DNA from: Candidatus Sumerlaeota bacterium
GTDB taxonomy: Bacteria; Sumerlaeota; Sumerlaeia; JADFCT01
Assembly (NCBI GenBank): GCA_026398575.1
Contig: JAPLSP010000253.1
Location: 1-12,420, forward strand
DNA: 12,420 nt
Direction: 5' to 3'
Shown piece after piece: positions 65 through 11,823 of this stretch (position 1 is the stretch's first letter; every line of letters begins with the position of its first letter). Both the position numbers and the translations under genes were made by a program. The notes beneath the pieces are model-generated. The model ran no database searches and was not told the DNA's origin. It saw only the letters and a program-made list of their open reading frames with translations.

Positions 65-2920
65 TCAGCGGTTCGCGGGTTGTTCCGGCGCCCCGGGCGT
101 CGTACGTTTGTCCGCGCTTGAAGTTGAACGTTTGTCCGCGCTGGGCGGCACTGGTTTGCTCGCGCTGGGCGGCATAGGTTTGTTCACGCTCGGCGCCACA
201 GGTTTATTCGCGCTCGGCGTCGTGGCCTTATCCGGAGAAACCGATTTCGCGGGCGAAAGCATCTTTTCCAGGCTGATTTTGGCCACATTGGCTTCCGGCG
301 ATCCTGGCGAGCTTGCCATGACGCGCTCATAAAGCATCTTTGCGCGGGCCGTATCGCTGCAAGCCAGAGTTTCCGACGAGGCGCGCAACAAGCACTCGAG
401 CGAAGACTGCCCTTTGATTTCGGACTTCAGCGTATCCAAGGCGGGCGTTGAAGCAGAGACCACCGGCTGCGTTTTTTCCACGACTTCGATCAAATGCGCC
501 AGGCGCTCATACTGCTCGGAAGCCTTCGCATGCTGTTTGGTCTCCACATAAATATTTGCCAGAATACGGTTGAAGGAGATGCTGATGGGGTTGTCCGCCA
601 GTTCTTTTTGAATATAGGAAAAGGCTTCGTCGCTTCTGCCCAGACGCGACAACGACTCCGTCTTCATGCTGACAACCCCGTCGTCGTGGTTGTTGTCTTC
701 ATCAATGATTTTCGTGCAGACATTGACGGTCCATCCCAGATACTGCTTGCGCAATTTATCATCCTTATCGCGCTCTGCCTGGTTGGCGGCGCTCAACAGA
801 GAGCGAGCCACTCCGACGCGCAGCTCCTGATGCGGCTTGATATCCTCATCCATCGTGTATCGGCGCATGGCGCACAGATAGAGAATTTCCCACGACCGCG
901 CCATCCATGTGCGGCGCTCCTCGTCCGAGACGTTGGGCGCGCGCTGCGCTGCGAATTGATAGGCCTGCGCCACGCTTTGCTGGACGTTGAGCTTCTTTTC
1001 CATCTTCAGCGCTCTCTCGAAATATGAGAGCGAAAGGCGCAGATTATCGGCGATGGACTTGGGATCGCGCGCATTGCGCGCCAGGACGCCATAGACGATG
1101 CCATAGTTGAACCAGGTTTCGGAATAGCCGGGCGCGAATTTTTCCAGTTCGTCATAAGCCTTGACGGCCTCGCTATATTGCACCAGCATACTGTAGGCGT
1201 GCGCCATCTTGTAATAGCTCGTGATAAATCCAGGCCACCAGTCAATCGCTTGCTTAAAAGATTGTATGGCGGCCTGATAATTTTCCGCCGCGCGCGGCTG
1301 CTGATCAACTCCCATCTGGGAAGCGTATTGAATCTGGATTATGCCTTCATTGTTGTAATAAGCGCTCGCGAAATAGCAGACGCCGAAGAAGAGAAGATAA
1401 AGCGCCAACAGTCCCGACAGGATCATGCCCGTTATTCCCAACCGGCGATTCCAGACGGGCGAAACCCTGCCCAGCGGACTACGCTGGAAAACCGGATCAG
1501 CGGGCGTTTTGGGGAGGGCCGCCGCCGCGGCGCCGGCTGCCGCCGCACGCGCCTCCAAGTCCTCGTTGCGCATCCCCAGCATCGCGCAGGAGATCGCCAG
1601 TCCGAACTGGAACCAATGATTGACGCCGCAGACCGTCCAGCGCATATTGGGGCTTACCGTGTCTTGAATCAGACACCCAAGAATGCCGGCCATCAATCCG
1701 ATTTGCTGTATCCTCAGGAACTCGGATCCACGGCGCAGAATCTGGCGGAAGCCCATCCAGAGCATGGTCCCCAGAAACGCCAGATAACATAAAAGGCCCA
1801 AAATGCCCTGTTCGCATAGGACATCCAGGTATTGATTATGGGCATAGAGATTGACATTGGCGATGCCGTTTTCGAAATAATTCTCCCTGAGATGAAACGG
1901 CGCGCAAACCAAATACCCGCCCGGTCCCGAGCCCAGGATCATGTTTTTGGGACCCTCACGGAACGTATCTATGGCGCACTGGAAAAGGATGGCGCGCGAT
2001 TGCAAGGCTTTTGTGATCATCAGAAACTGGGGTTTCATCCACCACCACAGCATCACCATAAATACCAGAAGCAACAGCGACAAACCGATGACCATCGCCC
2101 ATAATACGTCCGGTTTTTTGGACAAAACGTGTCCGATCGTGATGGACATCACGAAGTAGAAAATCACGATCAGGAAGAGGACGCCATCGGCGTCGTTGGA
2201 CCTCGCAAGGACGATGGAAATGCCCGCGAGGACGGCGGTCGTAAATCCCAGAATCGGCTCCCACCATGAACGGAATGGCGCCATGAACAGATTGACCGCC
2301 AGCGGGAACACGATCACCAGGAAGGCGGCATAAAAGTCCGAGTTGAGGATCGTGGAAAACATTTCATGATTGCTTGCCAGCGTGTAGAGCAGATCATAGA
2401 TGCGGCTGCGATATAAGGGCGGGCCCAGGGGGAACAGGGCGTTTATCAACAACCGGCAGCCGCCGTAATAATGAAAAAGCCCGAATAGAACCACCGCCAG
2501 GCAGATGCCGACGTAAATGGTGACGACCTTGCGAAAGATTTTCTCCGTCTTGATGCAGGCAGTGACGATGAAGAAAGGCGCAAACACCGCATAGTACCAG
2601 CTATTGGTGAACCAGGCGCGCCAGGGCTTGAAGGCCGTGAACGACGATATCAGCGAGACGATTACGAATCCGATGATCGGAAGCCAGATTCGCGGCGGAA
2701 TCGGCGCGGCCTCTCCGCGAAAAAGAATGTAGAAAAAGCCCAGCCAGCATAATGGCAGGAGCATGAATTGAAGCGTTGGTTTGATTTCGTCCAGGTTATT
2801 TGTGTATGAGGTGAACAGCACGAGAATTGCCGTCAGCGTGACCATCAAAAAACCGAGCAGCATGACATTGAGGGGCGTGGTCTGCCATGCTTTGTCTTCG
2901 GGAAACAATCGTTTGCCCAC
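65..2920 (-). CDS. O-antigen ligase/polymerase-like (Wzy_C) membrane protein fused to TPR domain
   Basis: Large inner-membrane protein of 951 residues, probably a ligase or polymerase joining glycan chains of a surface polysaccharide. About twelve hydrophobic segments lie between residues 18 and 450. The Wzy_C/O-antigen ligase region is at 307-390: a glycine-rich GSGPGGY (330-336), then AHNQYLDVLCEQGILG (360-375), the loop-plus-helix pattern of the family. An alanine-rich linker (458-469) and one more membrane segment (about 496-518) lead to a soluble part with TPR-like helices, clearest at 545-640 and again at about 750-875. The C-terminus is a Pro/Ser/Lys repeat tail (899-946). The start is GTG at 2920, with AGGAG ten bases upstream. 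At 951 residues it is about twice the usual ligase length because of the TPR half. The TPRs could recruit other assembly proteins. Ligase versus polymerase cannot be decided from sequence. Confidence 0.85.
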   Translation of the reverse strand: MGKRLFPEDKAWQTTPLNVMLLGFLMVTLTAILVLFTSYTNNLDEIKPTLQFMLLPLCWLGFFYILFRGEAAPIPPRIWLPIIGFVIVSLISSFTAFKPWRAWFTNSWYYAVFAPFFIVTACIKTEKIFRKVVTIYVGICLAVVLFGLFHYYGGCRLLINALFPLGPPLYRSRIYDLLYTLASNHEMFSTILNSDFYAAFLVIVFPLAVNLFMAPFRSWWEPILGFTTAVLAGISIVLARSNDADGVLFLIVIFYFVMSITIGHVLSKKPDVLWAMVIGLSLLLLVFMVMLWWWMKPQFLMITKALQSRAILFQCAIDTFREGPKNMILGSGPGGYLVCAPFHLRENYFENGIANVNLYAHNQYLDVLCEQGILGLLCYLAFLGTMLWMGFRQILRRGSEFLRIQQIGLMAGILGCLIQDTVSPNMRWTVCGVNHWFQFGLAISCAMLGMRNEDLEARAAAAGAAAAALPKTPADPVFQRSPLGRVSPVWNRRLGITGMILSGLLALYLLFFGVCYFASAYYNNEGIIQIQYASQMGVDQQPRAAENYQAAIQSFKQAIDWWPGFITSYYKMAHAYSMLVQYSEAVKAYDELEKFAPGYSETWFNYGIVYGVLARNARDPKSIADNLRLSLSYFERALKMEKKLNVQQSVAQAYQFAAQRAPNVSDEERRTWMARSWEILYLCAMRRYTMDEDIKPHQELRVGVARSLLSAANQAERDKDDKLRKQYLGWTVNVCTKIIDEDNNHDDGVVSMKTESLSRLGRSDEAFSYIQKELADNPISISFNRILANIYVETKQHAKASEQYERLAHLIEVVEKTQPVVSASTPALDTLKSEIKGQSSLECLLRASSETLACSDTARAKMLYERVMASSPGSPEANVAKISLEKMLSPAKSVSPDKATTPSANKPVAPSVNKPMPPSASKPVPPSADKRSTSSADKRTTPGAPEQPANR
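83..226 (-). repeat. 24-bp in-frame tandem repeat coding an 8-residue tail motif
   Basis: Six consecutive 24-bp units inside the 3' end of the ligase-TPR gene encode ATTPSANK, PVAPSVNK, PMPPSASK, PVPPSADK, RSTSSADK and RTTPGAPE (residues 899-946). The consensus is roughly xxxPSA(N/D)K, so the tail is Pro/Ser-rich and positively charged. The DNA copies have diverged but stay in register, which suggests slippage-driven expansion under selection to keep the frame. The function is unknown; it could be a flexible spacer or a polysaccharide- or wall-contacting tail. Confidence 0.85.
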
Positions 2921-3151: not shown

Positions 3152-3454
3152 GGACCCATCGAGCAGGCCGACTCTCTGCTTTCGCAACTAAAGAAGATGT
3201 CTGAGTTCGATTACGGCGCCACGCGCTCCGGGCTGCTGCTGATCGCGTGGGGATTGTTCAAGAAGCTGGTATTGGCCAACCGCTTGGCTGTCTATGTTGA
3301 CAGCGTATATAACTATGTTCATGACTACACCGGTTTGGCGTTGATTCTCGCCACCTATGCTTGTGCGCTGCAGATTTACTTCGATTTTTCCGGCTATACC
3401 GATATGGCGCGGGGCGTCGCAAGGATTTTCGGCATTGAACTGACCGAGAATTTT
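3152..3454 (+). pseudogene. Internal fragment of an MBOAT O-acyltransferase (AlgI-like), cut at both ends
   Basis: The frame reads GPIEQADSLLSQLKK, then the ATG at 3197, then ...DYGATRSGLLLIAWGLFKK... and LQIYFDFSGYTDMARG..., ending in GIELTENF. This is the middle of AlgI-type membrane-bound O-acyltransferases, which acetylate exopolysaccharides: the conserved AGPIER-like stretch, the GLFKKLVLAN helix and the FSGYTDMA segment. Family homology starts about 15 codons before the apparent ATG, right after a TAA at 3149-3151, so that ATG is not a true start. It stops sharply after ENF, just where the PY..S...FWRRWHISLS motif with the catalytic His should follow. About 100 of roughly 480 residues remain. 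It is the only coding trace on the plus strand. The frame stays open to 3670 only because the following heptamer array has no stops. It is non-functional as an enzyme and may be a remnant of an exopolysaccharide locus shared with the neighbouring ligase gene. Confidence 0.82.
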
Positions 3455-3501
3455 ACTAGCCTCTTGCATTGTTGGAATGAGAATTCGGCTCTCACTTGGA
3501 A

Positions 3502-3627
3502 ATTTCAAATTTCAGATTTCAGATTTCAAATTTCAGATTTCAAATTTCAGATTTCAAATTTCAGATTTCAAATTTCAGATCCCAAATTTCAGATCTCAAA
3601 TTTCAAATTTCAAATTTCAAATCCCTT
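3502..3627 (-). repeat. Heptamer array, 18 units of ATTTCAR type (minus strand YTGAAAT)
   Basis: Eighteen consecutive 7-bp units without phase slip: mostly ATTTCAA and ATTTCAG, with ATCCCAA (3579), ATCTCAA (3593) and ATCCCTT (3621) as variants. On the minus strand each unit ends in R-A-Y. After one extra base, GTCTGGA and ATTTCCC (3629-3642) may be two further decayed units. Seven is not a multiple of three and no frame contains a stop, so all three plus frames read as an artificial FQISDF-type peptide. The array fills much of the gap between the MBOAT relic and the 3' end of the phosphatase gene. Bases 3455-3501, between relic and array, are unassigned. Confidence 0.95.
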
Positions 3628-3656
3628 TGTCTGGAATTTCCCGGGTGCTACAGGCG

Positions 3657-5339
3657 CTACAGGGACTTGATCGCGATGAGCGTGCAATCGTCAAACTGAT
3701 CGGCCCCGCCCCGGAATTCGCGGACGGCCCCAAAAACGTATTCACATAAATCCATCGCCGGCCGGTGCAGATTCTGTTCGACCTCGTCCAGGAGCCGCGA
3801 TGCGCCGAAGAGCTCGGTCTTCTCATTGGCCATGTCGGTCAGACCGTCGGTATAGAGGAAAAGCGTGGCGCCGGGCGGCATTGCGACCTGCCCGACGCGA
3901 TACTCGGTATTGTCCAGCAAACCCAGAAACAGGCCGCCTTCGTCCAGTTCGATGCGCCGCCCATCGGGCAGATACAACAGGGGATAACAATGGCCGGCGT
4001 TGACGTAGGTGAACGTGCGCCGCGCTGAGTTCAGGATGCCGAAGACGCAGGAGACGAACATATTGTCGGTGGCGTCGCGGCAGATGGCGCGGTTCATTTG
4101 CGACATGATCTCGCGGACTTCGGCCATCAGGTTCGAGGCGTAGATTTGCAGCGAGGCGCGCATGACCGCCGTCAGCAGGGCGGCCGGAACGCCTTTGCCC
4201 GAGACGTCGGCGATGGCCAGCGCCAGCTCCTTCGGTCCCCGCGGAATATAATCGAAATAATCGCCGCCGACCTTGGTGGCCGGGACGCTGAGGCCCCAGA
4301 TGTCGAATCCCGGAAAATCCGGCGCGGCGCGGGGCAGCAGATTCGTTTGGATCGCGCGGGCGATTTCCATTTCGCGCTCGATGCGTTCCTGCTGCACGAC
4401 CCGCGCATGCAGGCGGGCGTTGGCGATCGCCGTGGCCGCCTGGTTGATGATGCCCGTGACCAACTCCAGTTCCTCGCGCTGATAGGGGAACAACGAGGAT
4501 CGGCTGTCGAGGTAGATTACGCCCAGCACTTTGTCGCGATGAATCAAGGGCGCGCAGATGGCCGAGCGGATTCGATGCGCCACGACGCTCTCGGAGGCGG
4601 AAAAGCGGACGTCGCGCGAGGCGTCGCTGACCAGAATCGCCACGCGCTGGGCCATGCATTGATCCACGATCGAGCGGCTGATGTGGATTTCCGAAATCGT
4701 CTCGGCCACTCCGCGCACGGCGCGCGGGAGCAGGCGGCTGTCCTTTTCATCCACCAGCATCAGGATCAGGGAATCGGGCGTGAGGACTTTTTGCAGAATG
4801 ACGCAGATCTCGTCCAGCAGCGAGTTCAGGTCGAAAATCGAGCGAATCTTTTCGGCCACCTCATACAGGATCGCCAGACGCTGCATCGGATCGCCAACCG
4901 CGGCGCCGCGCGCTGCTTCCAAGTGCGCAATGGGCGGTTGTGTCTCGCCGGCAGCCACCGAGCTTTCGAGCTGGCCCCATTGCGAAGACTCGTCGTCCAC
5001 CAGCTGAATCTGCGTCGAGTCATCCTTTCTCGGAGGGGCGATGGCGCCCTCGCCGGCGTCGAAAATCAGGATGGTATCGCCCATGCGCAGGCGGTCGCCG
5101 TGCTTGAGCGGGTGATCTTGCGACACCACCGCTTCATTGACATAGACTTTGTTTTTGCTGTCCAGATCATGCAGAAGAAAAGCCGTTCCATCGCGGACGA
5201 TTTCCGCGTGCTGGCGGGAACAACGCCGGTCGGGGATTTGAAGATCGCAGATGGGGCTGCGCCCGAGCAGCGTGCGCGGCTTGACCAGCTCATAGACCAG
5301 TTTGCGATCCGCTTCAATCTCGATGATGAGCTGCGCCAT
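3657..5339 (-). CDS. FHA-GAF-SpoIIE/PP2C serine phosphatase (RsbU-like)
   Basis: Cytoplasmic signalling phosphatase of 560 residues. The N-terminal FHA domain (about 1-95) binds phosphothreonine and shows LLGRSP (24-29), SRQHAEI (41-47) and a VYVNEAVV strand. A charged linker leads to a GAF domain (about 155-312), with CAPLIHRDKVLGVIYLDS (262-279) typical of GAF strands. Next is the RsbU-type connector ARAIQTNLLP (327-336), then a PPM/SpoIIE phosphatase domain with metal-binding GGDYFDY (358-364), DVSGKG (378-383), NAGH (447-450), LYTDGLTD (495-502) and a terminal DD (550-551). Such proteins usually dephosphorylate an anti-anti-sigma factor in a partner-switching pathway. No anti-sigma or STAS gene is present here. 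The start is ATG with GGAG upstream. It lies 131 bp after the dehydrogenase gene and may have its own promoter. Confidence 0.93.
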   Translation of the reverse strand: MAQLIIEIEADRKLVYELVKPRTLLGRSPICDLQIPDRRCSRQHAEIVRDGTAFLLHDLDSKNKVYVNEAVVSQDHPLKHGDRLRMGDTILIFDAGEGAIAPPRKDDSTQIQLVDDESSQWGQLESSVAAGETQPPIAHLEAARGAAVGDPMQRLAILYEVAEKIRSIFDLNSLLDEICVILQKVLTPDSLILMLVDEKDSRLLPRAVRGVAETISEIHISRSIVDQCMAQRVAILVSDASRDVRFSASESVVAHRIRSAICAPLIHRDKVLGVIYLDSRSSLFPYQREELELVTGIINQAATAIANARLHARVVQQERIEREMEIARAIQTNLLPRAAPDFPGFDIWGLSVPATKVGGDYFDYIPRGPKELALAIADVSGKGVPAALLTAVMRASLQIYASNLMAEVREIMSQMNRAICRDATDNMFVSCVFGILNSARRTFTYVNAGHCYPLLYLPDGRRIELDEGGLFLGLLDNTEYRVGQVAMPPGATLFLYTDGLTDMANEKTELFGASRLLDEVEQNLHRPAMDLCEYVFGAVREFRGGADQFDDCTLIAIKSL

Positions 5340-5434
5340 AGTTTATAATTCTCCGATGATCGCGCGCGCTTTGCCTTGGCCGTTCGATCCGTTTGCGCGA
5401 GCTCCGCCCGCCTCGGCGCCAATGATTGAAAGCG

Positions 5435-5464
5435 AATATAGCCGCACGGCGGCTCTGGGATCAA
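5435..5464 (-). promoter_or_regulatory. Candidate sigma70-like promoter for the phosphatase gene
   Basis: On the minus strand TTGATC (5464-5459) is followed by an 18-bp spacer and TATATT (5440-5435), giving a leader of about 90 bases before the phosphatase ATG. The spacer overlaps a perfect hairpin, AGCCGC-ACG-GCGGCT (5440-5454). That hairpin could instead be a weak terminator after the dehydrogenase gene, but no T-run follows it. Judged by eye only. Confidence 0.35.
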
Positions 5465-5470
5465 CCCGAT

Positions 5471-6631
5471 TTAGATTGCCTGCGCCAAAATCCGCCCCAG
5501 TTCCTCGTCCGTCAGCGCGATGGGGTTGCCTTTCATACTGCTGGCCGCGCGCGCCTTTGCAACGAGCGCGGGGATGTCATCCGGCTTCATCCCATAGTTC
5601 GACAGAGGCGGCACGCGCAATTTCCCGCACAAACGTCCGACCCATTGAGCGCCTTCGCCTGCCTTCGCCTGCGGATTTCCCGTCAGCAGCCGGGCGACTT
5701 CACGATAGCGAATCAGCGCGGGGGCGCCGGGAACGCGGCTTTCGAGCGCCCGGACGTTGGCTGCCATCACGAAAGGCAGCAAGCGCGCGCATACGCTGCC
5801 ATGGGGCGCGGGGAACATGCCCCCCAGCGGCGCGGCGAAACCGTGGACGGCGCCCAGCTTGGCGTTGGCCAGCGCCAGGCCGCCAAACAAACTGGCGACC
5901 GACATGTCTTCGCGCGCCTCGGCGTCGGCGCCGTTTTCGTATGCGCGCGGGAGCGCCCGCGCCGCGCGCTGCAACCCCTCGCGGCACAGTCCGTCCGTCA
6001 GCAGATTCGGCGCGTTGCAGACAAACGCCTCCATCAGCTGCGTCAGGGCGTCCAGGCCCGTGGCGGCAGTGACGGCGGGCGGCATCGTATGGGTCAGCAG
6101 CGGATCCACCACGGCCAGCCGCGGCAGCATCAGCGGGCTGCGCATCGAAACCTTGACGCGATGCTCGGGCGAGAGCAGCACGGCATTGCGCGTCACCTCG
6201 GCGCCGGTTCCAGCCGTCGTCGGGATCGTGATGCAGGGCGCCGAGGCTTTCGTCAAGGCGGCGCCCCGCCCGATCACCTCGAGGTAATCCAACAAATCGC
6301 CTTCGTTGGTCAGGAGGGCGGCGATGGCCTTTCCGGCGTCGAGCGGGCTGCCGCCGCCCATGGCTATCACAACGTCGCGCAAGGATTCGCGCCCCTGGCA
6401 CGCGACTTCGTGAACTATCGCTGTTGTTGGCTCGCCCGTGACGTTGAAAGAAATGCAGTCTATTCCCTCTTGCCGCAGTTGATCGAGGAGCGCCTCGCCA
6501 TGCCGCCGGACGCCGCCGAAGTCAGCCACGATCATCGCGCGCCGCCCCATCGCAGCAGCCAGCGCAGGAACCTCGGCCAGCGTTCCAGGCCCGAACAAGA
6601 TGCGTCCCGCAGTGGCAAACTCAAAGCGCAT
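5471..6631 (-). CDS. Iron-type (group III) alcohol dehydrogenase
   Basis: NAD(P)-dependent alcohol/aldehyde oxidoreductase of 386 residues, the usual length of the Fe-ADH family. The nucleotide-binding half has the GGGSPLD motif (92-98) and TIPTTAGTGAEVT (135-147). The metal-binding half aligns with the FucO ligand set: D194, then position 198 in GLDALTQLMEAF (192-203), H263 in AVHGFAAPLGG (261-271) and H277 in PAPHG (274-278). Position 198 is Gln, whereas FucO has the second ligand His. This is probably a subfamily trait, and it leaves the metal identity open. Start ATG has AGGAG six bases upstream. A hairpin (6689-6705) and repeat arrays lie upstream, so it is probably not tightly coupled to the preceding gene. 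The substrate is unknown; lactaldehyde, other short alcohols or a hydroxy acid are possible. Confidence 0.92.
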   Translation of the reverse strand: MRFEFATAGRILFGPGTLAEVPALAAAMGRRAMIVADFGGVRRHGEALLDQLRQEGIDCISFNVTGEPTTAIVHEVACQGRESLRDVVIAMGGGSPLDAGKAIAALLTNEGDLLDYLEVIGRGAALTKASAPCITIPTTAGTGAEVTRNAVLLSPEHRVKVSMRSPLMLPRLAVVDPLLTHTMPPAVTAATGLDALTQLMEAFVCNAPNLLTDGLCREGLQRAARALPRAYENGADAEAREDMSVASLFGGLALANAKLGAVHGFAAPLGGMFPAPHGSVCARLLPFVMAANVRALESRVPGAPALIRYREVARLLTGNPQAKAGEGAQWVGRLCGKLRVPPLSNYGMKPDDIPALVAKARAASSMKGNPIALTDEELGRILAQAI

Positions 6632-6688
6632 GAATTGCTCCTATCTCTAATTCGGCAGTATCAAGCCGAAAATTATCGCATTGTTTAT

Positions 6689-6705
6689 CTTGGGCGTATC
6701 CCAAG
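6689..6705. other. Perfect hairpin upstream of the dehydrogenase gene
   Basis: CTTGGG-CGTAT-CCCAAG is a perfect 6-bp stem about 58 bases upstream of the dehydrogenase start. A second, GCCAAG-GTAG-CTTGGC, lies at 6851-6866 near the end of the monooxygenase gene. Both share a CAAG/CTTG core, and copies of CCTTGG or CCAAGG recur through this gap. They could be operators for one regulator or mRNA structures. Neither is followed by a T-run, so terminator function is doubtful. Confidence 0.4.
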
Positions 6706-6736
6706 GCAGTTGCCGGCAAGACGCGGCGGCCATTAT

Positions 6737-6838
6737 TCTGACAAAATGATGTCTGATAAAACGATGAAGGCACCTTGCCGTCGAATCAGGCAGAAATACC
6801 TTGGCGCTATTATTTTGTCGCACATTATTTTGTCAGAC
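6737..6838. repeat. Symmetric repeat element: facing arms of 15-bp units around a foldable core
   Basis: The left arm is two 15-mers, TCTGACAAAATGATG and TCTGATAAAACGATG (6737-6766). The right arm is ATTATTTTGTCGCAC and ATTATTTTGTCAGAC (6809-6838), the same unit inverted. Each 15-mer splits into 7+8 bases ending in R-A-Y, giving four RAY triplets per arm (left at 6740, 6748, 6755, 6763; right, inverted, at 6809, 6817, 6824, 6832). The core (6767-6808) can fold as AAGG...CCTT enclosing TGCC...GGCA. The element occupies much of the 249-bp gap between the dehydrogenase and monooxygenase genes. No gene is visible in this gap. Confidence 0.85.
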
Positions 6839-6880
6839 TTCCCCCCGCACGCCAAGGTAGCTTGGCTGAAATGTGCCCGT

Positions 6881-7195
6881 TTACTTTGCCTTCCAACCAT
6901 CCTCGCTTGGGAAAATGTTATAGAATTTTATCGCAGTCCTCGGCTCGGACATCATGTCCGCCACGGCGTCGCGCCAGCGCGCATAGTGCGCCGTTTCCTT
7001 GTGTTTCGCAGGGTCCTCGACGGCGCGATAAACCTCCAACAGCATGAATCGCGTCGGATCGTCTTGTTGCTGGATGACGTCGAACCGCGCAATGCCCGGC
7101 TCTTGGAGGCTGTGACGCGCGTTGTCCAGCGAGGCCGCCGTGAACGCCTCGATCTGCTCCGGTTTCACATGAACGTTGACATGTACGATATACAT
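6881..7195 (-). CDS. LsrG/YgiN-like antibiotic-biosynthesis-monooxygenase (ABM) domain protein
   Basis: Small cytoplasmic protein of 104 residues, one ABM ferredoxin-like domain. The pattern resembles LsrG closely: an N-terminal strand [22 protein letters not shown] (32-42), RFMLLEVYR (49-57), then [10 protein letters not shown] (65-74) and a C-terminal [15 protein letters not shown] strand. LsrG isomerises phospho-AI-2 and YgiN acts on quinols; members usually work as dimers. No other lsr genes are present, so an AI-2 role is not supported here, and a heme- or flavin-free oxygenase or isomerase on another small carbonyl compound is as likely. The start ATG has a strong AGGAGG five to six bases upstream. 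The gene lies 132 bp after the sulfatase, and that gap is filled by a repeat element. Confidence 0.88.
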
Positions 7196-7210
7196 GGCGC
7201 CCTCCTATTA

Positions 7211-7343
7211 TCGAAATGCAAAATGAAAAACGAAAAATTGAAAATGAGACTGGGCGCGACAGACATAGCATGCAAAGCTATGCGCTCCCGTTTTCGGGAT
7301 GGGCAGTTATTTTGCATTTCTCATTTCTCATTTTGCATTAAGT
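7211..7343. repeat. Symmetric heptamer element: 5 + 5 facing units around a 63-bp hairpin core
   Basis: Left arm (7211-7245), plus strand: TCGAAAT, GCAAAAT, GAAAAAC, GAAAAAT, TGAAAAT. Right arm (7309-7343), minus strand: ACTTAAT, GCAAAAT, GAGAAAT, GAGAAAT, GCAAAAT. All ten units end in AAY. The core (7246-7308) is 63 bp. It can fold as GGGCGCG (7252-7258) with CGCTCCC (7283-7289, one mismatch) around CATAGC-ATGCAAA-GCTATG (7264-7282), or alternatively as TCCCG-TTTT-CGGGA (7286-7299); the two overlap. The element fills nearly the whole sulfatase-monooxygenase gap, and its right arm overlaps the last 16 bases of the sulfatase gene. Confidence 0.88.
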
Positions 7344-9070
7344 TGCGGCTTGCCCATGGTGACAAATTCCTCTTCGCTCAGCACGCCGTCCTTGTTGGTG
7401 TCGAAGGTGGGGAACCGTCGGCGGCCTTCGGCTTCATCCGGAAATTTATTGAGATACTCTTCCAAAGTCATCTTGCCGTCGTGGTTTGTGTCCTTGTTCT
7501 TGAAGATCGCCGCGCGATCCAGAGCGGGCTTTGCCGGCGCGTCGGTTTTTGCTTTGGCCGCCTGGCGCGGCTTGTCCACCGGCTCGCCGCGGGCTGCCGC
7601 TGTCTCTCGCGCCTTGCTCGGCGGCAGCGTTTTCTGCCACGCCAGCGCCTTGGCCGTGAGTTCTTTAACCATGTCCGGATGCTCCAAGGCGACGTTGCGT
7701 TTCTCGGAGAAATCTTTTGGGATGTCGTAAAGCTCCGCGCGGCTGCCGTCGTGGTTGACGAAGAGTTTCCATGCGTCGTCGCGGATTGCAAGCATCGGCG
7801 GCTGATACTCCTCGCCCCAGACGCGGAAGAGCCATTCCCAATATAGCGGCTTGCGGCGCGGACGCAATTGCCCCAGCCAGATGTCGCTCACGTCCTCGCC
7901 GTCCGGTTGGACGCTCTCCGGCACGGCGACGCCGGCTAGTTTGCAGATCGTCGGCAGCCAGTCCACTCCCGCGATCACGCTCGTTTCGTCCACGCGGCCG
8001 GCGGCGACCTTGCCCGGCCAGCGCAGTACGCCAAACGTGCGGATGCCGCCTTCATACATACTGCGCTTGCGCGCGCGCAGCGGGCCGGTATTGCCGACGC
8101 CGGCGTTGGAGGCGTTGCCGATGTGGTAGTCCTCCGCGCCGTTATCGCTCGAGAAAAACACGATGGTGTTGTCGCCAAGTTTGAGATCATCGAGCGCCTG
8201 CATCAGCCGCCCGATTTGCGCGTCGAGGTCTGTCAGCGAGGCGCAGAAGACCTGCATCTGGCTTTTCAGGTCCTTGGCCGCGCCGAGATATTTCTGCATC
8301 CATTCGCCAAACGCCGGATCGTCGGCGCGCGGAGCGAGCGACTCATAGACTTTGAGCTGTTCCGGCGTCGGCTTGAGCGGCGCGTGCGGCAGCAGCGTCC
8401 ACACGTTGACATAGAACGGGCGTTCCCGGTTGGCTTTGATGAACTTGATCGTCTCGTCCACGATCATCGCGCTGGACTTGGCGCGGAAATAGGGATCGGT
8501 TTGCTCGGGCGTGCGCCGCTTGCCATCGGGTGGCGTTGAGCCGTCATCGCCGAGGGCCGGAGCGTCAGGACTGCCGTTGACGGTTCGGGATATTTCGATC
8601 CCATAGGCGTCGGGGGGCGGCGCGCCAGAGCCATTGCCGAGATGCCATTTGCCGAAGTGGGCCGTGGCATAGCCGGCGTCGCGCAGCAGTTTCGTGATGG
8701 TGATCGCCTTGGGATCGAGCCAGTCGGGCATGGCGCGCGACTCATTGAGCGAGTGATCGGCGAAGTGGCCGTGGATCAGATGCCGCGCCGGATAATGCGA
8801 CGTCATGAACGCGCACCGGCTGGGCGAGCAGACGGTGGCGGCGACGTAGAATTGCTTGAACCACGTCCCCTGCGAAGCGAGCCGGTCGAGGTTGGGCGTC
8901 TTGACGTACGGGTGTCCGGCAAAGCGCGCGTCTCCCCAGCCCTGATCGTCGGTGAGGATGAAAATAACATTGGGCCGTGTCGCCTCGGCGGCGTGACCGG
9001 TGTTTGCGAACGCCAGCGTCAACGCAGCGGATGCGCAGAGGAGGATGAGTATTCGGATTCCGAGTTTCAT
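7328..9070 (-). CDS. Secreted arylsulfatase-type sulfatase with C-terminal EF-hand pair
   Basis: Sulfate-ester hydrolase of 580 residues, exported through a signal peptide (about 1-28; hydrophobic core ILILLCASAALTLAFA, probable cut near GHAA). Type I sulfatase signatures are intact: DDQG (41-44) for calcium binding, CSPSR (81-85) whose Cys81 would be converted to formylglycine, HFGKWHLG (138-145), LPHAP (227-231) and FSSDNG (306-311). Activity requires a formylglycine-generating enzyme, which is not in the window. A Lys/Ala/Pro-rich linker (about 484-520) leads to two canonical EF-hand loops, DTNHDGKMTLEE (527-538) and DTNKDGVLSEEE (557-568), which probably bind calcium. The last codons and stop (QLNAK*) are made of repeat-element DNA, so the original C-terminus may have been altered. 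GAGG lies eight bases before the ATG. It follows the esterase gene by 65 bp, suggesting joint action on a sulfated, acylated polysaccharide. The exact substrate is unknown. Confidence 0.95.
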   Translation of the reverse strand: MKLGIRILILLCASAALTLAFANTGHAAEATRPNVIFILTDDQGWGDARFAGHPYVKTPNLDRLASQGTWFKQFYVAATVCSPSRCAFMTSHYPARHLIHGHFADHSLNESRAMPDWLDPKAITITKLLRDAGYATAHFGKWHLGNGSGAPPPDAYGIEISRTVNGSPDAPALGDDGSTPPDGKRRTPEQTDPYFRAKSSAMIVDETIKFIKANRERPFYVNVWTLLPHAPLKPTPEQLKVYESLAPRADDPAFGEWMQKYLGAAKDLKSQMQVFCASLTDLDAQIGRLMQALDDLKLGDNTIVFFSSDNGAEDYHIGNASNAGVGNTGPLRARKRSMYEGGIRTFGVLRWPGKVAAGRVDETSVIAGVDWLPTICKLAGVAVPESVQPDGEDVSDIWLGQLRPRRKPLYWEWLFRVWGEEYQPPMLAIRDDAWKLFVNHDGSRAELYDIPKDFSEKRNVALEHPDMVKELTAKALAWQKTLPPSKARETAAARGEPVDKPRQAAKAKTDAPAKPALDRAAIFKNKDTNHDGKMTLEEYLNKFPDEAEGRRRFPTFDTNKDGVLSEEEFVTMGKPQLNAK

Positions 9071-9135
9071 TTTTCGAGCCTCGCTGAGATACTGAAATAT
9101 TTAAGCCCAATCGCTTCTGCCTTGGATCACCCCTG

Positions 9136-10284
9136 TTAGAACAACAGTGACAGAAATTCGCCCAGATACATCCGCCACACCGGCCATTCATGCGCGCCTT
9201 CAGACGGACGCCATGTATTTTTGACGCCATGCTCCGTCATCCATTTCGTCAGATCCTCCGCTCTTGCGAAGCCTTTGTCCTGCTGGCCGCAGCCGATCCA
9301 CAACAGCTTCAAATTCTTCCTGCTCGTTTCGGCATTGTCAATCAGACGCTTGTACGCGGTGTCCGGTTCCCTGGCCAGCCCGGCGCTCCACACTCCAACG
9401 TATCCGAATAACTCCGGGTGGTTGAGGCCGATGCTGGCCGCCTGGGCGCCGCCCATCGAAAGCCCGGCGATCGCCCGATGATCGCTATCCGCAATAACCC
9501 GGTACTTCGCCTCCACCAGCGGAATAACGTCATTCAGCAAATCCGCTTCAAACAGCCTCAACGACCGCCCCCGCTCGATGGCCGTATCGCTCGTAGTCTG
9601 CGCCGGCGGGGGCACGTGCCCGAGCGGCATTACAATAATGGCGGGTTTCGCTTTCCTTTGGGCTAGAAGGTTGTCCATGATTTGATTGGCCCGGCCAATC
9701 ATTGTCCATCCCGACTCGGTATCGCCCGATCCGTGCAGCAGATACAGCACGGGAAACTTGGCGTTGCGTCTGCCGTATCCCGGCGGCGTATAAACATAAA
9801 CCCTGCGATCGGCGGCGAGTGTTGTTGAGTGATACCAGTGGATCGTCACCTGGCCGTGCGGCACATTCCGCATTTCATAGAGCGCGGGCTTCTTGGCGGG
9901 GATCGGCAGAAGACTGCTGGTCGGTCCCTTGATGTCCGGATTGCCCGGATCGGCCATGGATACGCCGTCCACCACGAAACTGTAATCATAAATCGCCGGC
10001 GCCAGCGGACCGAGAGTGACGCTCCATACGCCCTCGGAGTCCTTGACCATCGGGCGCGCGCCAATCTGACCGGCTACCGAGACTTCCAACGCCTTCGGCG
10101 CCCGCAGACGCATTGTCACGGTTCGGTCCGGATAAATCTCCGACGCCACGCGCGGCGGCGGCGCATTGGTAGCTGCCGGCTGCTGCTTGGTCCGCGTCGC
10201 CGCGCAGCCCAGGGCCATTGCCCCAACGAGCAGAGCCATTGCCCCAAGAAGCAGCATTCCTGAATTTCGATTGAGTCGCGTCAC
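9136..10284 (-). CDS. Exported CE1-like esterase (feruloyl/acetyl-esterase type) with N-terminal E-set domain
   Basis: Serine hydrolase of 382 residues, likely envelope-anchored or secreted. The start chosen is GTG at 10284 because a strong AGAGGAGGA sits just upstream and the reading frame above it runs through hairpin repeat DNA. A hydrophobic signal (about 10-26) ends in MALGC (Cys27), a weak lipobox lacking the usual Leu at -3. Residues about 50-130 resemble an E-set/CBM48-like module (VTMRLRAPKALEVSVAG, then GPLAPAIYDYSFVVDG). The alpha/beta-hydrolase follows: YLLHGSGD (181-188), nucleophile Ser276 in GLSMGG, probable Asp336 in GCGQQDKG and His365 in GAHEWPVWR. This arrangement is known from CE1 enzymes such as XynZ-type feruloyl esterases and enterochelin esterase relatives. 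With the sulfatase downstream, removal of acyl groups from polysaccharide is the best guess. Confidence 0.9.
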   Translation of the reverse strand: MTRLNRNSGMLLLGAMALLVGAMALGCAATRTKQQPAATNAPPPRVASEIYPDRTVTMRLRAPKALEVSVAGQIGARPMVKDSEGVWSVTLGPLAPAIYDYSFVVDGVSMADPGNPDIKGPTSSLLPIPAKKPALYEMRNVPHGQVTIHWYHSTTLAADRRVYVYTPPGYGRRNAKFPVLYLLHGSGDTESGWTMIGRANQIMDNLLAQRKAKPAIIVMPLGHVPPPAQTTSDTAIERGRSLRLFEADLLNDVIPLVEAKYRVIADSDHRAIAGLSMGGAQAASIGLNHPELFGYVGVWSAGLAREPDTAYKRLIDNAETSRKNLKLLWIGCGQQDKGFARAEDLTKWMTEHGVKNTWRPSEGAHEWPVWRMYLGEFLSLLF

Positions 10285-10296
10285 AAATCCTCCTCT
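10285..10296 (-). promoter_or_regulatory. Ribosome binding site fixing the esterase start at GTG
   Basis: The minus strand reads AGAGGAGGATTT directly before GTG at 10284. The AGGAGG core is four bases from the start codon, or the overlapping GAGG seven. The only longer alternative, ATG at 10422, has no such site and would translate repeat DNA. This supports the shorter protein with its signal sequence at the N-terminus. Confidence 0.8.
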
Positions 10297-10337
10297 GTCC
10301 TGCGAAATTGTTGGATTTGGTCTTTCAAACTCCAGTT

Positions 10338-10441
10338 TTCCCCGAAGGGGAACCACAATCATAGCCGTGGGTGATGCGAAGCGATAGCGGAGCGAACCCA
10401 CGGTAGCGGCATTCAAAACCATTGGTCCCCGAAGGGGGCCA
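10338..10441. repeat. Cluster of three GC-rich hairpins (REP/BIME-like)
   Basis: Three inverted repeats follow one another in the 177-bp gap between rlmI and the esterase gene. A: TTCCCC-GAA-GGGGAA (10338-10352). B: CCGTGGGT (10365-10372) paired with ACCCACGG (10396-10403) around a 23-base loop that itself contains GCGAAGCG and GCGGAGCG. C: TGGTCCCC-GAA-GGGGGCCA (10423-10441, one G-T pair). A and C share the core CCCCGAAGGGG, which on the minus strand gives a CCCC-TTCG-GGG loop. No T-run follows, so these look more like dispersed extragenic palindromes than terminators. They could stabilise the 3' end of the rlmI transcript. Confidence 0.75.
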
Positions 10442-10461
10442 ACGTCGTCGCCAAAACAACC

Positions 10462-11649
10462 CTATCTTCTCTTCCTCAAAAAGAAAACCTTCAGATACGA
10501 CGTCTCCGGCGTTTGAAGGTGAACGGGGTGGTCCCAGGATTGCCCGCTTTGAATGGCGATTGAAAAATCCGAATGCGCGTCCTTCGCGGCCATGGTCAGC
10601 ATATCTCGAAAATCATCGAGGCCAACGTTATGCGAGCAGGAACAAGTGATCAGCAATCCGTCCTCGCTCAGCAGCTTCATGGCGCGCAGATTGAGCTCGC
10701 GATAGGCCTTCAAGGCGTTTTCGGCGTCCCGTTTGCTTTTGGCCAGCGCGGGCGGATCGAGGATGATGACGTCGAATTGCCTGTTTTCGGCGACCGCCTT
10801 GCGCACGAATTCAAAGACATCCGCTTCCTCGAAGGCGCAACGTTCCGGAGGCAGATGGTTGCGGCGCGCGGCGGCCCGGGCCAATTCCAGCGCGGCCTGC
10901 GAGGAGTCAATCCCCAACGTTTCGCGCGCGCCGTGAACCGCCGCGACCAGTGACCAACCGCCGACGTAGCAGAACAAATCCAGAACGCGCTTATCCTTGA
11001 AAAAAGGGATCGCCAGCGTCCGATTTTGAACTTGATCGAGATAGTATCCGGTCTTCTGCCCCTCCAGCAAATCCGCCAGCACGATGGCGCCGTTTTCTTC
11101 GATCTCGCACGGCGCGCGCATTTCGCCGTGGATGCAGCCCTTGGTTTCCTCCAAGCCTTCGACCGTGCGATAAGGCACATCGCTGCGCTCGATGATGGCG
11201 CGGGGCGAGCACACTTCGATGAGCGATTCCATCAGCGCCGCGCGCCGCGCCTCCATCGCGAAGGTCGAAATCTGAATCACGAGTTGATCGCCGAAGACGT
11301 CAACGATCAGCCCCGGCAGTCCATCCGATTCGCTGTGGATCAGGCGATAGGAATGCGGCAGCGGCCCAAAAGTTTCGCGATAGGCGCGCGCCGCCTGCAA
11401 TCTTCCTGCGATAAACGCGCGGTCGCAGGGTTGTTCCCACAATCGCGAATAAATCCGCGCGCGGATCATCGAGGACTTGCTGAACAGCCCCATCCCAAGG
11501 AATTTTCGCTTGCCGCTGAAAACCTTGACCTCGTCTCCTGGCTGCGGCTCACCCTCTATCGCCTCGACTTCATTGGAAAACACCCACAAATGCCCGCGCT
11601 CTGCCCGCCGTCCCACGCGTCGTTTCAATGTGATGGCTTTGGCAGTCAT
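10462..11649 (-). CDS. rlmI: RlmI-type class I rRNA large-subunit methyltransferase
   Basis: SAM-dependent enzyme of 395 residues, almost exactly the length of E. coli RlmI, which makes m5C1962 in 23S rRNA. An N-terminal PUA-like domain (1-75; RRVGRRAERGHLWVFSNEV matches the family N-terminus and fixes the start) is followed by the central domain with SDGLPGLIVDVFGDQLV (108-124) and KTGYYLDQVQNR (199-210). The Rossmann methyltransferase has motif I VLDLFCYVGGWSL (222-234), LGIDSS (245-250), DPP (298-300) and the cysteine motif TCSCSH (335-340), whose Cys is the expected catalytic or base-flipping residue. DHPV (373-376) is also typical. Upstream of the ATG there is no Shine-Dalgarno sequence: a tandem repeat of CCCTGAC type runs to within five bases of the start codon. 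Family assignment is firm; the exact target C1962 is inferred. Confidence 0.93.
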   Translation of the reverse strand: MTAKAITLKRRVGRRAERGHLWVFSNEVEAIEGEPQPGDEVKVFSGKRKFLGMGLFSKSSMIRARIYSRLWEQPCDRAFIAGRLQAARAYRETFGPLPHSYRLIHSESDGLPGLIVDVFGDQLVIQISTFAMEARRAALMESLIEVCSPRAIIERSDVPYRTVEGLEETKGCIHGEMRAPCEIEENGAIVLADLLEGQKTGYYLDQVQNRTLAIPFFKDKRVLDLFCYVGGWSLVAAVHGARETLGIDSSQAALELARAAARRNHLPPERCAFEEADVFEFVRKAVAENRQFDVIILDPPALAKSKRDAENALKAYRELNLRAMKLLSEDGLLITCSCSHNVGLDDFRDMLTMAAKDAHSDFSIAIQSGQSWDHPVHLQTPETSYLKVFFLRKRR

Positions 11650-11654
11650 AAGGG

Positions 11655-11682
11655 GTCGGGGGTCAGGGGTCAGGGATCAGGA
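11655..11682 (-). repeat. Short heptamer array, 4 units abutting the rlmI start
   Basis: On the plus strand the units are GTCGGGG, GTCAGGG, GTCAGGG and ATCAGGA. On the minus strand they read TCCTGAT, CCCTGAC, CCCTGAC, CCCCGAC, each ending in R-A-Y. The array ends five bases from the rlmI ATG (11649), where a ribosome binding site would be expected. A 12-base stretch (11683-11694) separates it from the long array in the opposite orientation. Confidence 0.85.
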
Positions 11683-11694
11683 AAAGTGCTGCTG

Positions 11695-11820
11695 ACTCAA
11701 CGTCCAATGTCCAACAGGGAATATCCAATATCCAACTGCAAATCATGAATTGCAAATCACAAACTGCGAACTGAAAACTGATAACTGTGAACTCGGAACT
11801 CGGAACTCGGAACTCGGAAC
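11695..11820 (+). repeat. Long diversified heptamer array, 18 units ending in AAY
   Basis: Eighteen in-phase 7-bp units on the plus strand: ACTCAAC, GTCCAAT, GTCCAAC, AGGGAAT, ATCCAAT, ATCCAAC, TGCAAAT, CATGAAT, TGCAAAT, CACAAAC, TGCGAAC, TGAAAAC, TGATAAC, TGTGAAC and four TCGGAAC. Positions 1-4 vary widely, with 14 different units, while positions 5-7 are AAY in every unit. The array fills the space between rlmI and the DsrE-family gene, ending three bases before that gene's stop codon (11824-11826). No gene is present in this stretch. Confidence 0.95.
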
Positions 11821-11823
11821 TGC

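What the first reader, a model, noticed from the sequence alone, without database searches (positions are those of the whole stretch)
3502..11820. One hidden rule, N4-R-A-Y in steps of 7 (or 7/8), unites repeats of different sequence in four gaps
The arrays at 3502-3627, 6737-6838, 7211-7343, 11655-11682 and 11695-11820 share little sequence, yet each, read on one strand, places R-A-Y at every seventh base; the 15-mers alternate 7 and 8. All 58 units I counted obey this. The strongest case is 11695-11820, where 14 different units keep AAY at positions 5-7 while positions 1-4 drift. Tandem heptamers are known as STRR sequences of cyanobacteria, but a fixed triplet with free positions across unrelated arrays suggests a common generator, a template-guided process, or a phased protein binding site. 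Caveats: the phase was chosen after looking, and identical copies are not independent.
Basis: partly seen in the sequence, partly recalled or inferred. Interest (0 to 1): 0.78.

Follow-up and report, generated by a model that had tools for sequence, protein, structure and literature searches.

The report
Seven-base repeats sharing an AAY core
Gaps between genes in this uncultured bacterium hold arrays of seven-base repeats, some paired as mirror arms predicted to fold into hairpins, and like such arrays in other bacteria they tend to keep one triplet (purine-A-pyrimidine) at every seventh base while the other bases drift, a real tendency though not a law, and of unknown cause.

Summary
In detail: five array regions carry R-A-Y at steps of 7 (7/8 in one), 58 of 58 units. 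In the window alone this is weak evidence. I tested it on 1.67 Mb, nearly all from other genomes. Period-7 arrays are far commoner than other short periods (135 against at most 37) and lie mostly outside long ORFs (95 of 133). Among 63 degenerate arrays of other than the seed heptamers, 32 keep RAY in every unit against 18.0 expected when columns are permuted; RAY is not in excess at periods 6, 8 and 9. So the rule is a tendency of heptamers, met by about half; the 7/8 extension is not supported. The arrays are STRR-like. Two of the window's (6737-6838, 7214-7339) are inverted arms predicted to fold, an arrangement common elsewhere (19 of 63 neighbour pairs inverted at 6/7 or better, 1 direct). 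In one planctomycete genome a repeat end found at 101 sites frames several unrelated heptamer-armed inserts in the same place. Best reading: a new variant of a known kind. A shared generator or binding protein is possible but not shown.

The parts
3500..3622 (+). Array A: about 17.6 heptamers AAATTTC/AGATTTC, nearly self-complementary; 18 RAT triplets at step 7; after a truncated MBOAT-like gene remnant and about 35 bp beyond the 3' end of the SpoIIE-family gene (3657-5339, minus)
   Evidence: folds on itself with z -3.6, 1 of 200 shuffles as good
6737..6766 (+). Array B, left arm: two 15-mers TCTGACAAAATGATG / TCTGATAAAACGATG; GAC/GAT at spacing 8/7
6767..6807 (.). Core of stem-loop B (41 bp) between inverted arms
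6808..6838 (-). Array B, right arm, inverted: TCTGACAAAATAATG / TGCGACAAAATAAT on the minus strand
   Evidence: whole element folds with z -5.8 (plus) and -2.8 (minus)
7214..7247 (+). Array C, left arm: diverged heptamers (AAATGAA-like), 5 RAY units
7248..7308 (.). Core of stem-loop C (61 bp), by eye with two small internal palindromes
   Evidence: fold
7309..7339 (-). Array C, right arm, inverted relative of the left arm (consensus units agree at 6 of 7 positions); overlaps the last codons of the sulfatase ORF that ends at 7328
   Evidence: fold z -3.3 (plus), -5.9 (minus)
11652..11681 (-). Array D: 4 heptamers (TGACCCC-like on the minus strand), GAY at step 7
11697..11822 (+). Array E: 18 heptamers N-N-A-A-Y-N-N; AAY constant while four columns use all letters; ends in four GAACTCG units and a partial fifth; no stable fold (z 0.8)

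Best explanation
These are STRR-like heptanucleotide arrays in a bacterium probably close to Candidatus Sumerlaeota. Shown: 7-bp periodicity (15-mers in region B), placing between genes, inverted arms in two of the five regions with predicted stem-loops, and a preference for RAY/AAY at every seventh base that recurs in heptamer arrays of other genomes. Inferred: units are gained and lost by slippage in 7-nt steps; arm pairs spread or are born as small non-autonomous stem-loop inserts and act, if at all, as hairpins in the transcripts between co-directional genes; within a unit the AAY/RAY triplet is under a constraint that the other four bases escape, most likely as the contact of a factor that acts on it during copying or processing. 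Which factor is unknown.
For: Period 7 stands out: 135 arrays against 3, 5, 37, 33, 34, 5, 2 for periods 4, 5, 6, 8, 9, 10, 11 in 1,674,401 bp from 94 sources. 95 of 133 period-7 arrays lie outside ORFs of 150 aa or more, which cover 84% of bases; for periods 6 and 9 it is 8 of 37 and 3 of 33. RAY in every unit: 32 of 63 degenerate non-seed arrays against 18.0 (sd 3.1) under column permutation, 29 of 60 against 16.7 without the window, 36 of 69 against 22.3 with one array per heptamer; RAR, YAY, YAR, RCY (RGY on the other strand), YCR, RCR and YCY are not in excess; RAW (33 against 15.6) and WAY (29 against 16.6), which share AAT with it, are. RAY is not in excess at periods 6, 8, 9. Mirror controls agree: 57 of 104 real against 30, 30, 39. 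Inverted neighbours: 19 of 63 at 6/7 or better, direct 1 of 63, random pairs about 3% each. Folding of B and C: none of 200 shuffles folds as well, on either strand. The heptamer of array E, (GAACTCG)n, occurs in 6 of 199 genomes of the planctomycete sample, 162 hits in one; the pattern read backwards in 1 of 199.
Against: Half of the arrays break RAY. When seed arrays are kept (135) RAR is in excess as well (65 against 48.5), and at period 8 RAR is too (20 of 30 against 14.5). In ordinary DNA of the same sources RAY is already commoner than YAR (27% against 20% of NAN triplets), which the permutation null ignores. In inverted pairs the RAY strand is assignable to both arms in only 7 of 30 (5 convergent, 2 divergent). 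D with E, and E alone, do not fold. Sampled genomes were chosen with two seed heptamers that themselves obey RAY; seed arrays were dropped (31 of 135) but relatives of them may remain, arms of one pair are counted apart, and single linkage at one mismatch joins 59 of 69 heptamers into one cluster; with one array per cluster RAY is 3 of 9 against 3, 4, 2 in controls. No function was measured.
Confidence: 0.62

Rival explanations
1. Phased protein-binding site: a small oligomeric DNA-binding protein reads one half-site per 7 bp, and RAY is the base-specific contact, as the ribbon-helix-helix ParB (Omega) of plasmid pSM19035 reads contiguous 7-bp WATCACW repeats in several orientations.
For: Such a reader exists and needs at least four contiguous 7-bp sites for full activity (passages of PMC9499535); its site read on the other strand holds GAT at a constant place. 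A constant triplet with free bases between is what a minimal contact would give (array E). The same heptamer sits at unlinked sites of G186 with mostly unrelated flanks: of 11 sites compared, one pair shares 132 bp at 95% and one pair 28 bp at 86%.
Against: Different heptamers in one genome would need a reader that ignores four of seven bases. No Omega_Repress in 12 genomes, but the control set was silent too, so this is uninformative. Array E holds one WATCACW, not a run of them.
Confidence: 0.15
2. Ordinary slippage microsatellites with no letter rule: a few ancestral heptamers happened to hold AAY and present arrays descend from or resemble them.
For: Single arrays of the window reach full RAY by column permutation with P 0.05 to 0.30; 59 of 69 heptamers join one cluster at one mismatch, and cluster representatives show no excess (3 of 9).
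Against: One array per heptamer still gives 36 of 69 against 22.3 expected; the excess is absent at periods 6, 8 and 9; in array E the AAY columns are fixed while the rest vary freely; slippage alone does not make inverted partners.
Confidence: 0.15
3. A common generator writes the units, for example template switching between arrays anchored on the shared triplet, or a polymerase with a short template, so that AAY stays in phase while the unit changes.
For: Array E passes through several unit types with AAY in phase. In G052 one repeat frame holds at least three unrelated heptamer-armed inserts at the same place (17 of 59 copies with both ends). Neighbouring arms match as inverted copies.
Against: Within each G052 subtype the arms look alike between copies, so an insert born once and then spread with the frame explains them. 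By eye the triplet shifts phase by one base inside some arrays (L052, L060). No enzyme was identified; Y1 transposase domains are more numerous in six genomes where arrays were seen (22, 5, 2, 5, 16, 4) than in six others (0, 0, 3, 2, 2, 1), but the genome with the frame has only 2 weak ones.
Confidence: 0.08

Closest known systems
STRR heptanucleotide repeats of cyanobacteria (name recalled; three heptanucleotides of Calothrix PCC7601 are cited in PMC4692102, passages seen)
   Same: Tandem 7-bp units; the GGGGA(C/T)T units of Nostoc (same paper) have GAY every 7
   Different: Host is not a cyanobacterium as far as one protein tells; a triplet shared across unit types is not described in what I read
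TAACTGA direct repeats of Beggiatoaceae, Cyanobacteria and Bacteroidetes (PMC4679880: abstract and two sections read)
   Same: Heptamer arrays, mostly intergenic, in some genomes mixed with other heptamers, indels in 7-nt steps between two Cyanothece strains; the unit holds AAC
   Different: In the Beggiatoaceae genome one unit dominates and most sets lie just before start codons
GGGAATC repeats of Xanthomonas (PMC4692102: one section and passages read)
   Same: Heterogeneous heptamers; two nearby arrays in convergent orientation in 70 cases (186 patterns) and 75 (183)
   Different: G-tracts with G-quadruplex potential; conserved positions there are 1-4 and 6 of GGGANTN
P6b stem-loop of the Nostoc tRNA-Leu intron (PMC4476775: abstract and passages seen)
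   Same: Stem built of heptamers (TDNGATT or NNTGAGT), one class replaced by the other in the same frame, like the G052 frame here
   Different: Lies in a group I intron of a tRNA gene; the window has no tRNA and no Rfam match
REP/REPIN elements (listings and abstract starts only)
   Same: Extragenic, palindromic, many copies
   Different: 20-40 bp palindromes rather than heptamer arrays; their heads and transposase partner were not tested here

Membership tests
STRR-type heptanucleotide arrays | Tandem units of 7 bp | tested here: met
   region B is an exception with two 15-mers per arm
STRR-type heptanucleotide arrays | Intergenic, many copies per genome | tested here: inconclusive
   Between genes in the window; copy number in its own genome not testable; the unit GAACTCG has 162 hits in G186
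STRR-type heptanucleotide arrays | Cyanobacterial host | tested here: not met
   Organism names among the 120 listed homologues of the SpoIIE protein are Sumerlaeota/BRC1 or plain 'bacterium'; one protein only; so filed as STRR-like, not as STRR
Convergent heptamer pairs (Xanthomonas type) | Two arrays of related units in inverted orientation | tested here: met
   Region C and, with 15-mers, B; not seen for A, D, E
Convergent heptamer pairs (Xanthomonas type) | G-tract units able to form quadruplexes | tested here: not met
   By eye only array D is G-rich; no biophysical test
P6b-type heptamer stem-loop | Location in a tRNA-Leu group I intron | tested here: not met
   No tRNA gene and no Rfam match in the window
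parS of pSM19035 | Several contiguous WATCACW heptads | tested here: not met
   One in array E, three in the whole window on both strands
REP/REPIN | Short palindromic units with a RAYT transposase (partner recalled) | tested here: inconclusive
   Y1 domain counts in 12 other genomes only; own genome not held

The most novel reading that the evidence does not exclude
A widespread, undescribed mechanism in several bacterial phyla writes or maintains intergenic heptamer arrays with an AAY/RAY anchor every 7 nt, as inverted arm pairs that can be exchanged as cassettes in a stem-loop frame; the anchor is where a copying or binding factor engages each unit.
Probability: 0.1. Interest if true: 0.88.

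Novelty: new variant of a known kind. Interest (0 to 1): 0.5.

Why it matters
Heptamer excess in bacterial genomes has been noted (passages of PMC4692102) and I saw no explanation of it in what I read. A triplet preference that is specific to period 7 and recurs out of sample, together with inverted arms and unrelated heptamer-armed inserts inside one dispersed frame, turns the question 'why seven?' into one with testable parts: which bases are held, which arms pair, and what moves.

Tried and rejected
Rejected: a universal rule (half the arrays fail). Rejected: extension to 7/8 spacing (15-mer pair in 0 of 149 genomes; the six period-15 arrays elsewhere do not resemble it by eye). Rejected: RAY strand as a guide to arm orientation (7 of 30 assignable). 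Invalid: the EM comparison, because its likelihood cannot change under the mirror controls. Led nowhere: empty-site comparison, four relatives of G186 show no period-7 array in the loci fetched beside the left-hand gene, but at about 70% identity and with the far side not shown to be conserved; Omega_Repress search with a silent control; phylum of G010, which appears not to be that of the window; the match of the 15-mer in a viral contig lies inside a portal-like ORF with no array; accession guesses for cyanobacterial plasmids; (CAATTCT)n in 0 of 299 genomes of the phylum of G001; (GGAACTC)n in 0 of the 15 genomes of the first loci; array A's unit pair in 0 viral contigs.

Rows dropped before counts: arrays of true period 1 to 3 and arrays with N; loci fetched by seed (L016-L045, L064-L069) left out of the pooled array statistics; 31 of 135 period-7 arrays with a seed heptamer left out of 'non-seed' counts. 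One search used an earlier subset (111 arrays) and is superseded. One search used looser array limits, kept seed arrays, and has near-duplicate rows. Of the 101 sites of the G052 left end, 30 came as loci and 60 as short stretches (some cut by contig ends); with the loci, 96 distinct copies entered.
Full report
What is there. The window (12,420 bp, 57.8% G+C) carries ordinary genes on the minus strand: an O-antigen-ligase/TPR protein, an FHA-GAF-SpoIIE phosphatase, an iron alcohol dehydrogenase, an ABM monooxygenase, a sulfatase with EF-hands, an esterase, a PUA-domain SAM methyltransferase and a DsrE-like protein. Of the 120 listed homologues of the phosphatase (4,313 found), those with an organism name are Candidatus Sumerlaeota/BRC1 or plain 'bacterium' (at most 47% identity); five unnamed proteins are nearer at 50-68%. 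No genome is held for the window; it has no tRNA gene and no Rfam match.

Check of the observation. All 58 units fit: 46 in the four longer step-7 runs (18, 5, 5, 18), 4 in 11655-11682 and 8 in the 15-mers of 6737-6838. Each 15-mer holds three RAY triplets, of which the 8/7 chain uses two. Shuffled windows never gave a run above 6 (200 shuffles). But repeat copies are not independent; with columns permuted, single arrays reach full RAY with P 0.29, 0.054, 0.30 and 0.14. The remarkable array is E: over 18 units AA is invariant and the next base is C or T only, while four columns use all four letters.

Test outside the window. Array E ends in (GAACTCG)n. Three tandem copies less two bases occur in 6 of 199 genomes drawn from the phylum of G012, whose locus L012 is titled Planctomycetota, 162 hits in one of them (G186); read backwards, in 1 of 199. 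(TAACTGA)3 occurs in 10 of 198 genomes of the phylum of G003 (locus titled Bacteroidetes; backwards control in 2 of 198). I took stretches from these genomes and from G010 and G096: with the window and the 15 loci, 94 sources and 1,674,401 bp. Some stretches were placed on known hits. Period-7 arrays number 135; periods 4, 5, 6, 8, 9, 10, 11 give 3, 5, 37, 33, 34, 5, 2. Of 133 period-7 arrays in sources of 5 kb or more outside the set, 95 lie outside ORFs of at least 150 aa, which cover 84% of bases; period 8: 25 of 32; period 6: 8 of 37; period 9: 3 of 33.

The triplet. The null that I trust most permutes the seven columns of each array, keeping its letters, drift and copy number, with strand and phase free in both. 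Full RAY: 59 of 104 non-seed arrays against 42.7; 32 of 63 degenerate ones (three or more distinct units) against 18.0 (sd 3.1); 29 of 60 against 16.7 without the window; 36 of 69 against 22.3 with one array per heptamer. The seven other purine/pyrimidine classes are near or below expectation in degenerate arrays (largest surpluses 16 against 14.0 and 17 against 14.3); RAW (33 against 15.6) and WAY (29 against 16.6), which overlap RAY in AAT, are in excess. With seed arrays kept, RAY is 82 of 135 against 59.9, and RAR is in excess too, 65 against 48.5. RAY at periods 6, 8 and 9: 1 of 37 against 2.4, 10 of 30 against 10.1, 8 of 34 against 7.3; RAR at period 8: 20 of 30 against 14.5. In 46 diverged arrays of six or more units (seed arrays included, a few near-duplicates) the most conserved triplet is RAY in 21 (strand-collapsed AAT 13, AAC 5, ATC 2, GAC 1), where 4 of 32 collapsed triplets are RAY. 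In the same DNA as a whole RAY is 27% of NAN triplets, RAR 33%, YAR 20%, YAY 20%, a neighbour bias that the permutation ignores. Against the rule: half of the arrays break it; collapsing heptamers by single linkage at one mismatch leaves 9 clusters of which 3 obey, as in the controls; genomes were picked with seeds that obey RAY; in 30 inverted pairs a RAY strand is assignable to both arms in only 7.

The arms. Of 63 neighbour pairs within 150 bp, 19 match as inverted copies at 6 or 7 of 7 positions and 1 as direct copies; random pairs do so in about 3% each. In the window, regions B and C are such pairs and fold better than all 200 shuffles on both strands (z -5.8 and -2.8; -3.3 and -5.9); A folds on itself (z -3.6, 1 of 200 as good); D with most of E, and E alone, do not (z 0.5, 0.8).

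A dispersed frame with different heptamers. One planctomycete-phylum genome (G052) holds the end CAGGGGGAGGGGAACGGCC at 101 sites (one mismatch allowed; backwards 0). Of 96 distinct copies read, 59 have a recognised right end within 260 bp; 17 of these 59 contain heptamer arms of three unrelated kinds (AACTCGG with inverted GCGGAAT, 6; GGATTGC/GGATTTC, 2; GGGGTTC with inverted CGGGCGA, 9), and 42 have other inserts, by eye mostly GC-rich with short inverted repeats (not folded). Two further copies with AGAAGTC-like arms were seen among loci (L138, L140). This resembles the Nostoc P6b stem-loop, whose heptamer class is replaced in the same frame (passages of PMC4476775). In G186, by contrast, 11 sites of (GAACTCG)n have unrelated flanks apart from one pair with 132 bp at 95% and one with 28 bp at 86%. 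A contig of the viral collection (L281) carries 15 period-7 arrays (looser limit) in 12.5 kb, by eye many CTCAGCA/TGAGTGC in inverted pairs; the unit of array E was found in 3 stretches of that collection.

Literature. Seen: PMC4679880 (abstract, two sections), PMC4692102 (one section, passages), PMC4476775, PMC6749651, PMC4060949 and PMC9499535 (passages). None of what I read states a triplet shared across unrelated heptamers; the searches were in the held open-licence library only. Recalled, from no call: the name STRR as used here and its first description, REP/RAYT biology.

Verdict. The arrays are STRR-like heptamers, some forming predicted stem-loop arms. The cause is open.

Noticed in passing
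window 3197-3481: Remnant of an MBOAT O-acyltransferase gene: best-listed plasmid matches are MBOAT proteins at up to 50% identity, though Pfam gave none for the ORF at 1e-3; it stops short of array A.
   Followed up: partly
window 130-219: 24-bp tandem repeat (3.8 copies) inside the O-antigen-ligase/TPR gene, coding for a Pro/Lys/Ser-rich tail.
   Followed up: no
window 7309-7339: The right arm of stem-loop C supplies the last codons and stop of the sulfatase ORF (ends 7328), so the array touches coding sequence.
   Followed up: no
L281 3450-10869: Contig of the viral collection with 15 period-7 arrays, CTCAGCA/TGAGTGC arms in inverted pairs by eye; two places share the left arm but differ in the right arm.
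   Followed up: partly
G052, e.g. L130-L189 and L210-L269: Repeat family with a GC-rich end at 101 sites and exchangeable inner inserts, several with heptamer arms; some copies sit at contig ends.
   Followed up: partly
L055, L073, L074, L106: Period-8 arrays are also mostly outside long ORFs (25 of 32) but show no RAY excess.
   Followed up: partly
L093 10795-10991 and L204: A 132-bp stretch beside (GAACTCG)n is shared at 95% by two sites of G186; in L093 it lies near two different heptamer arrays.
   Followed up: no
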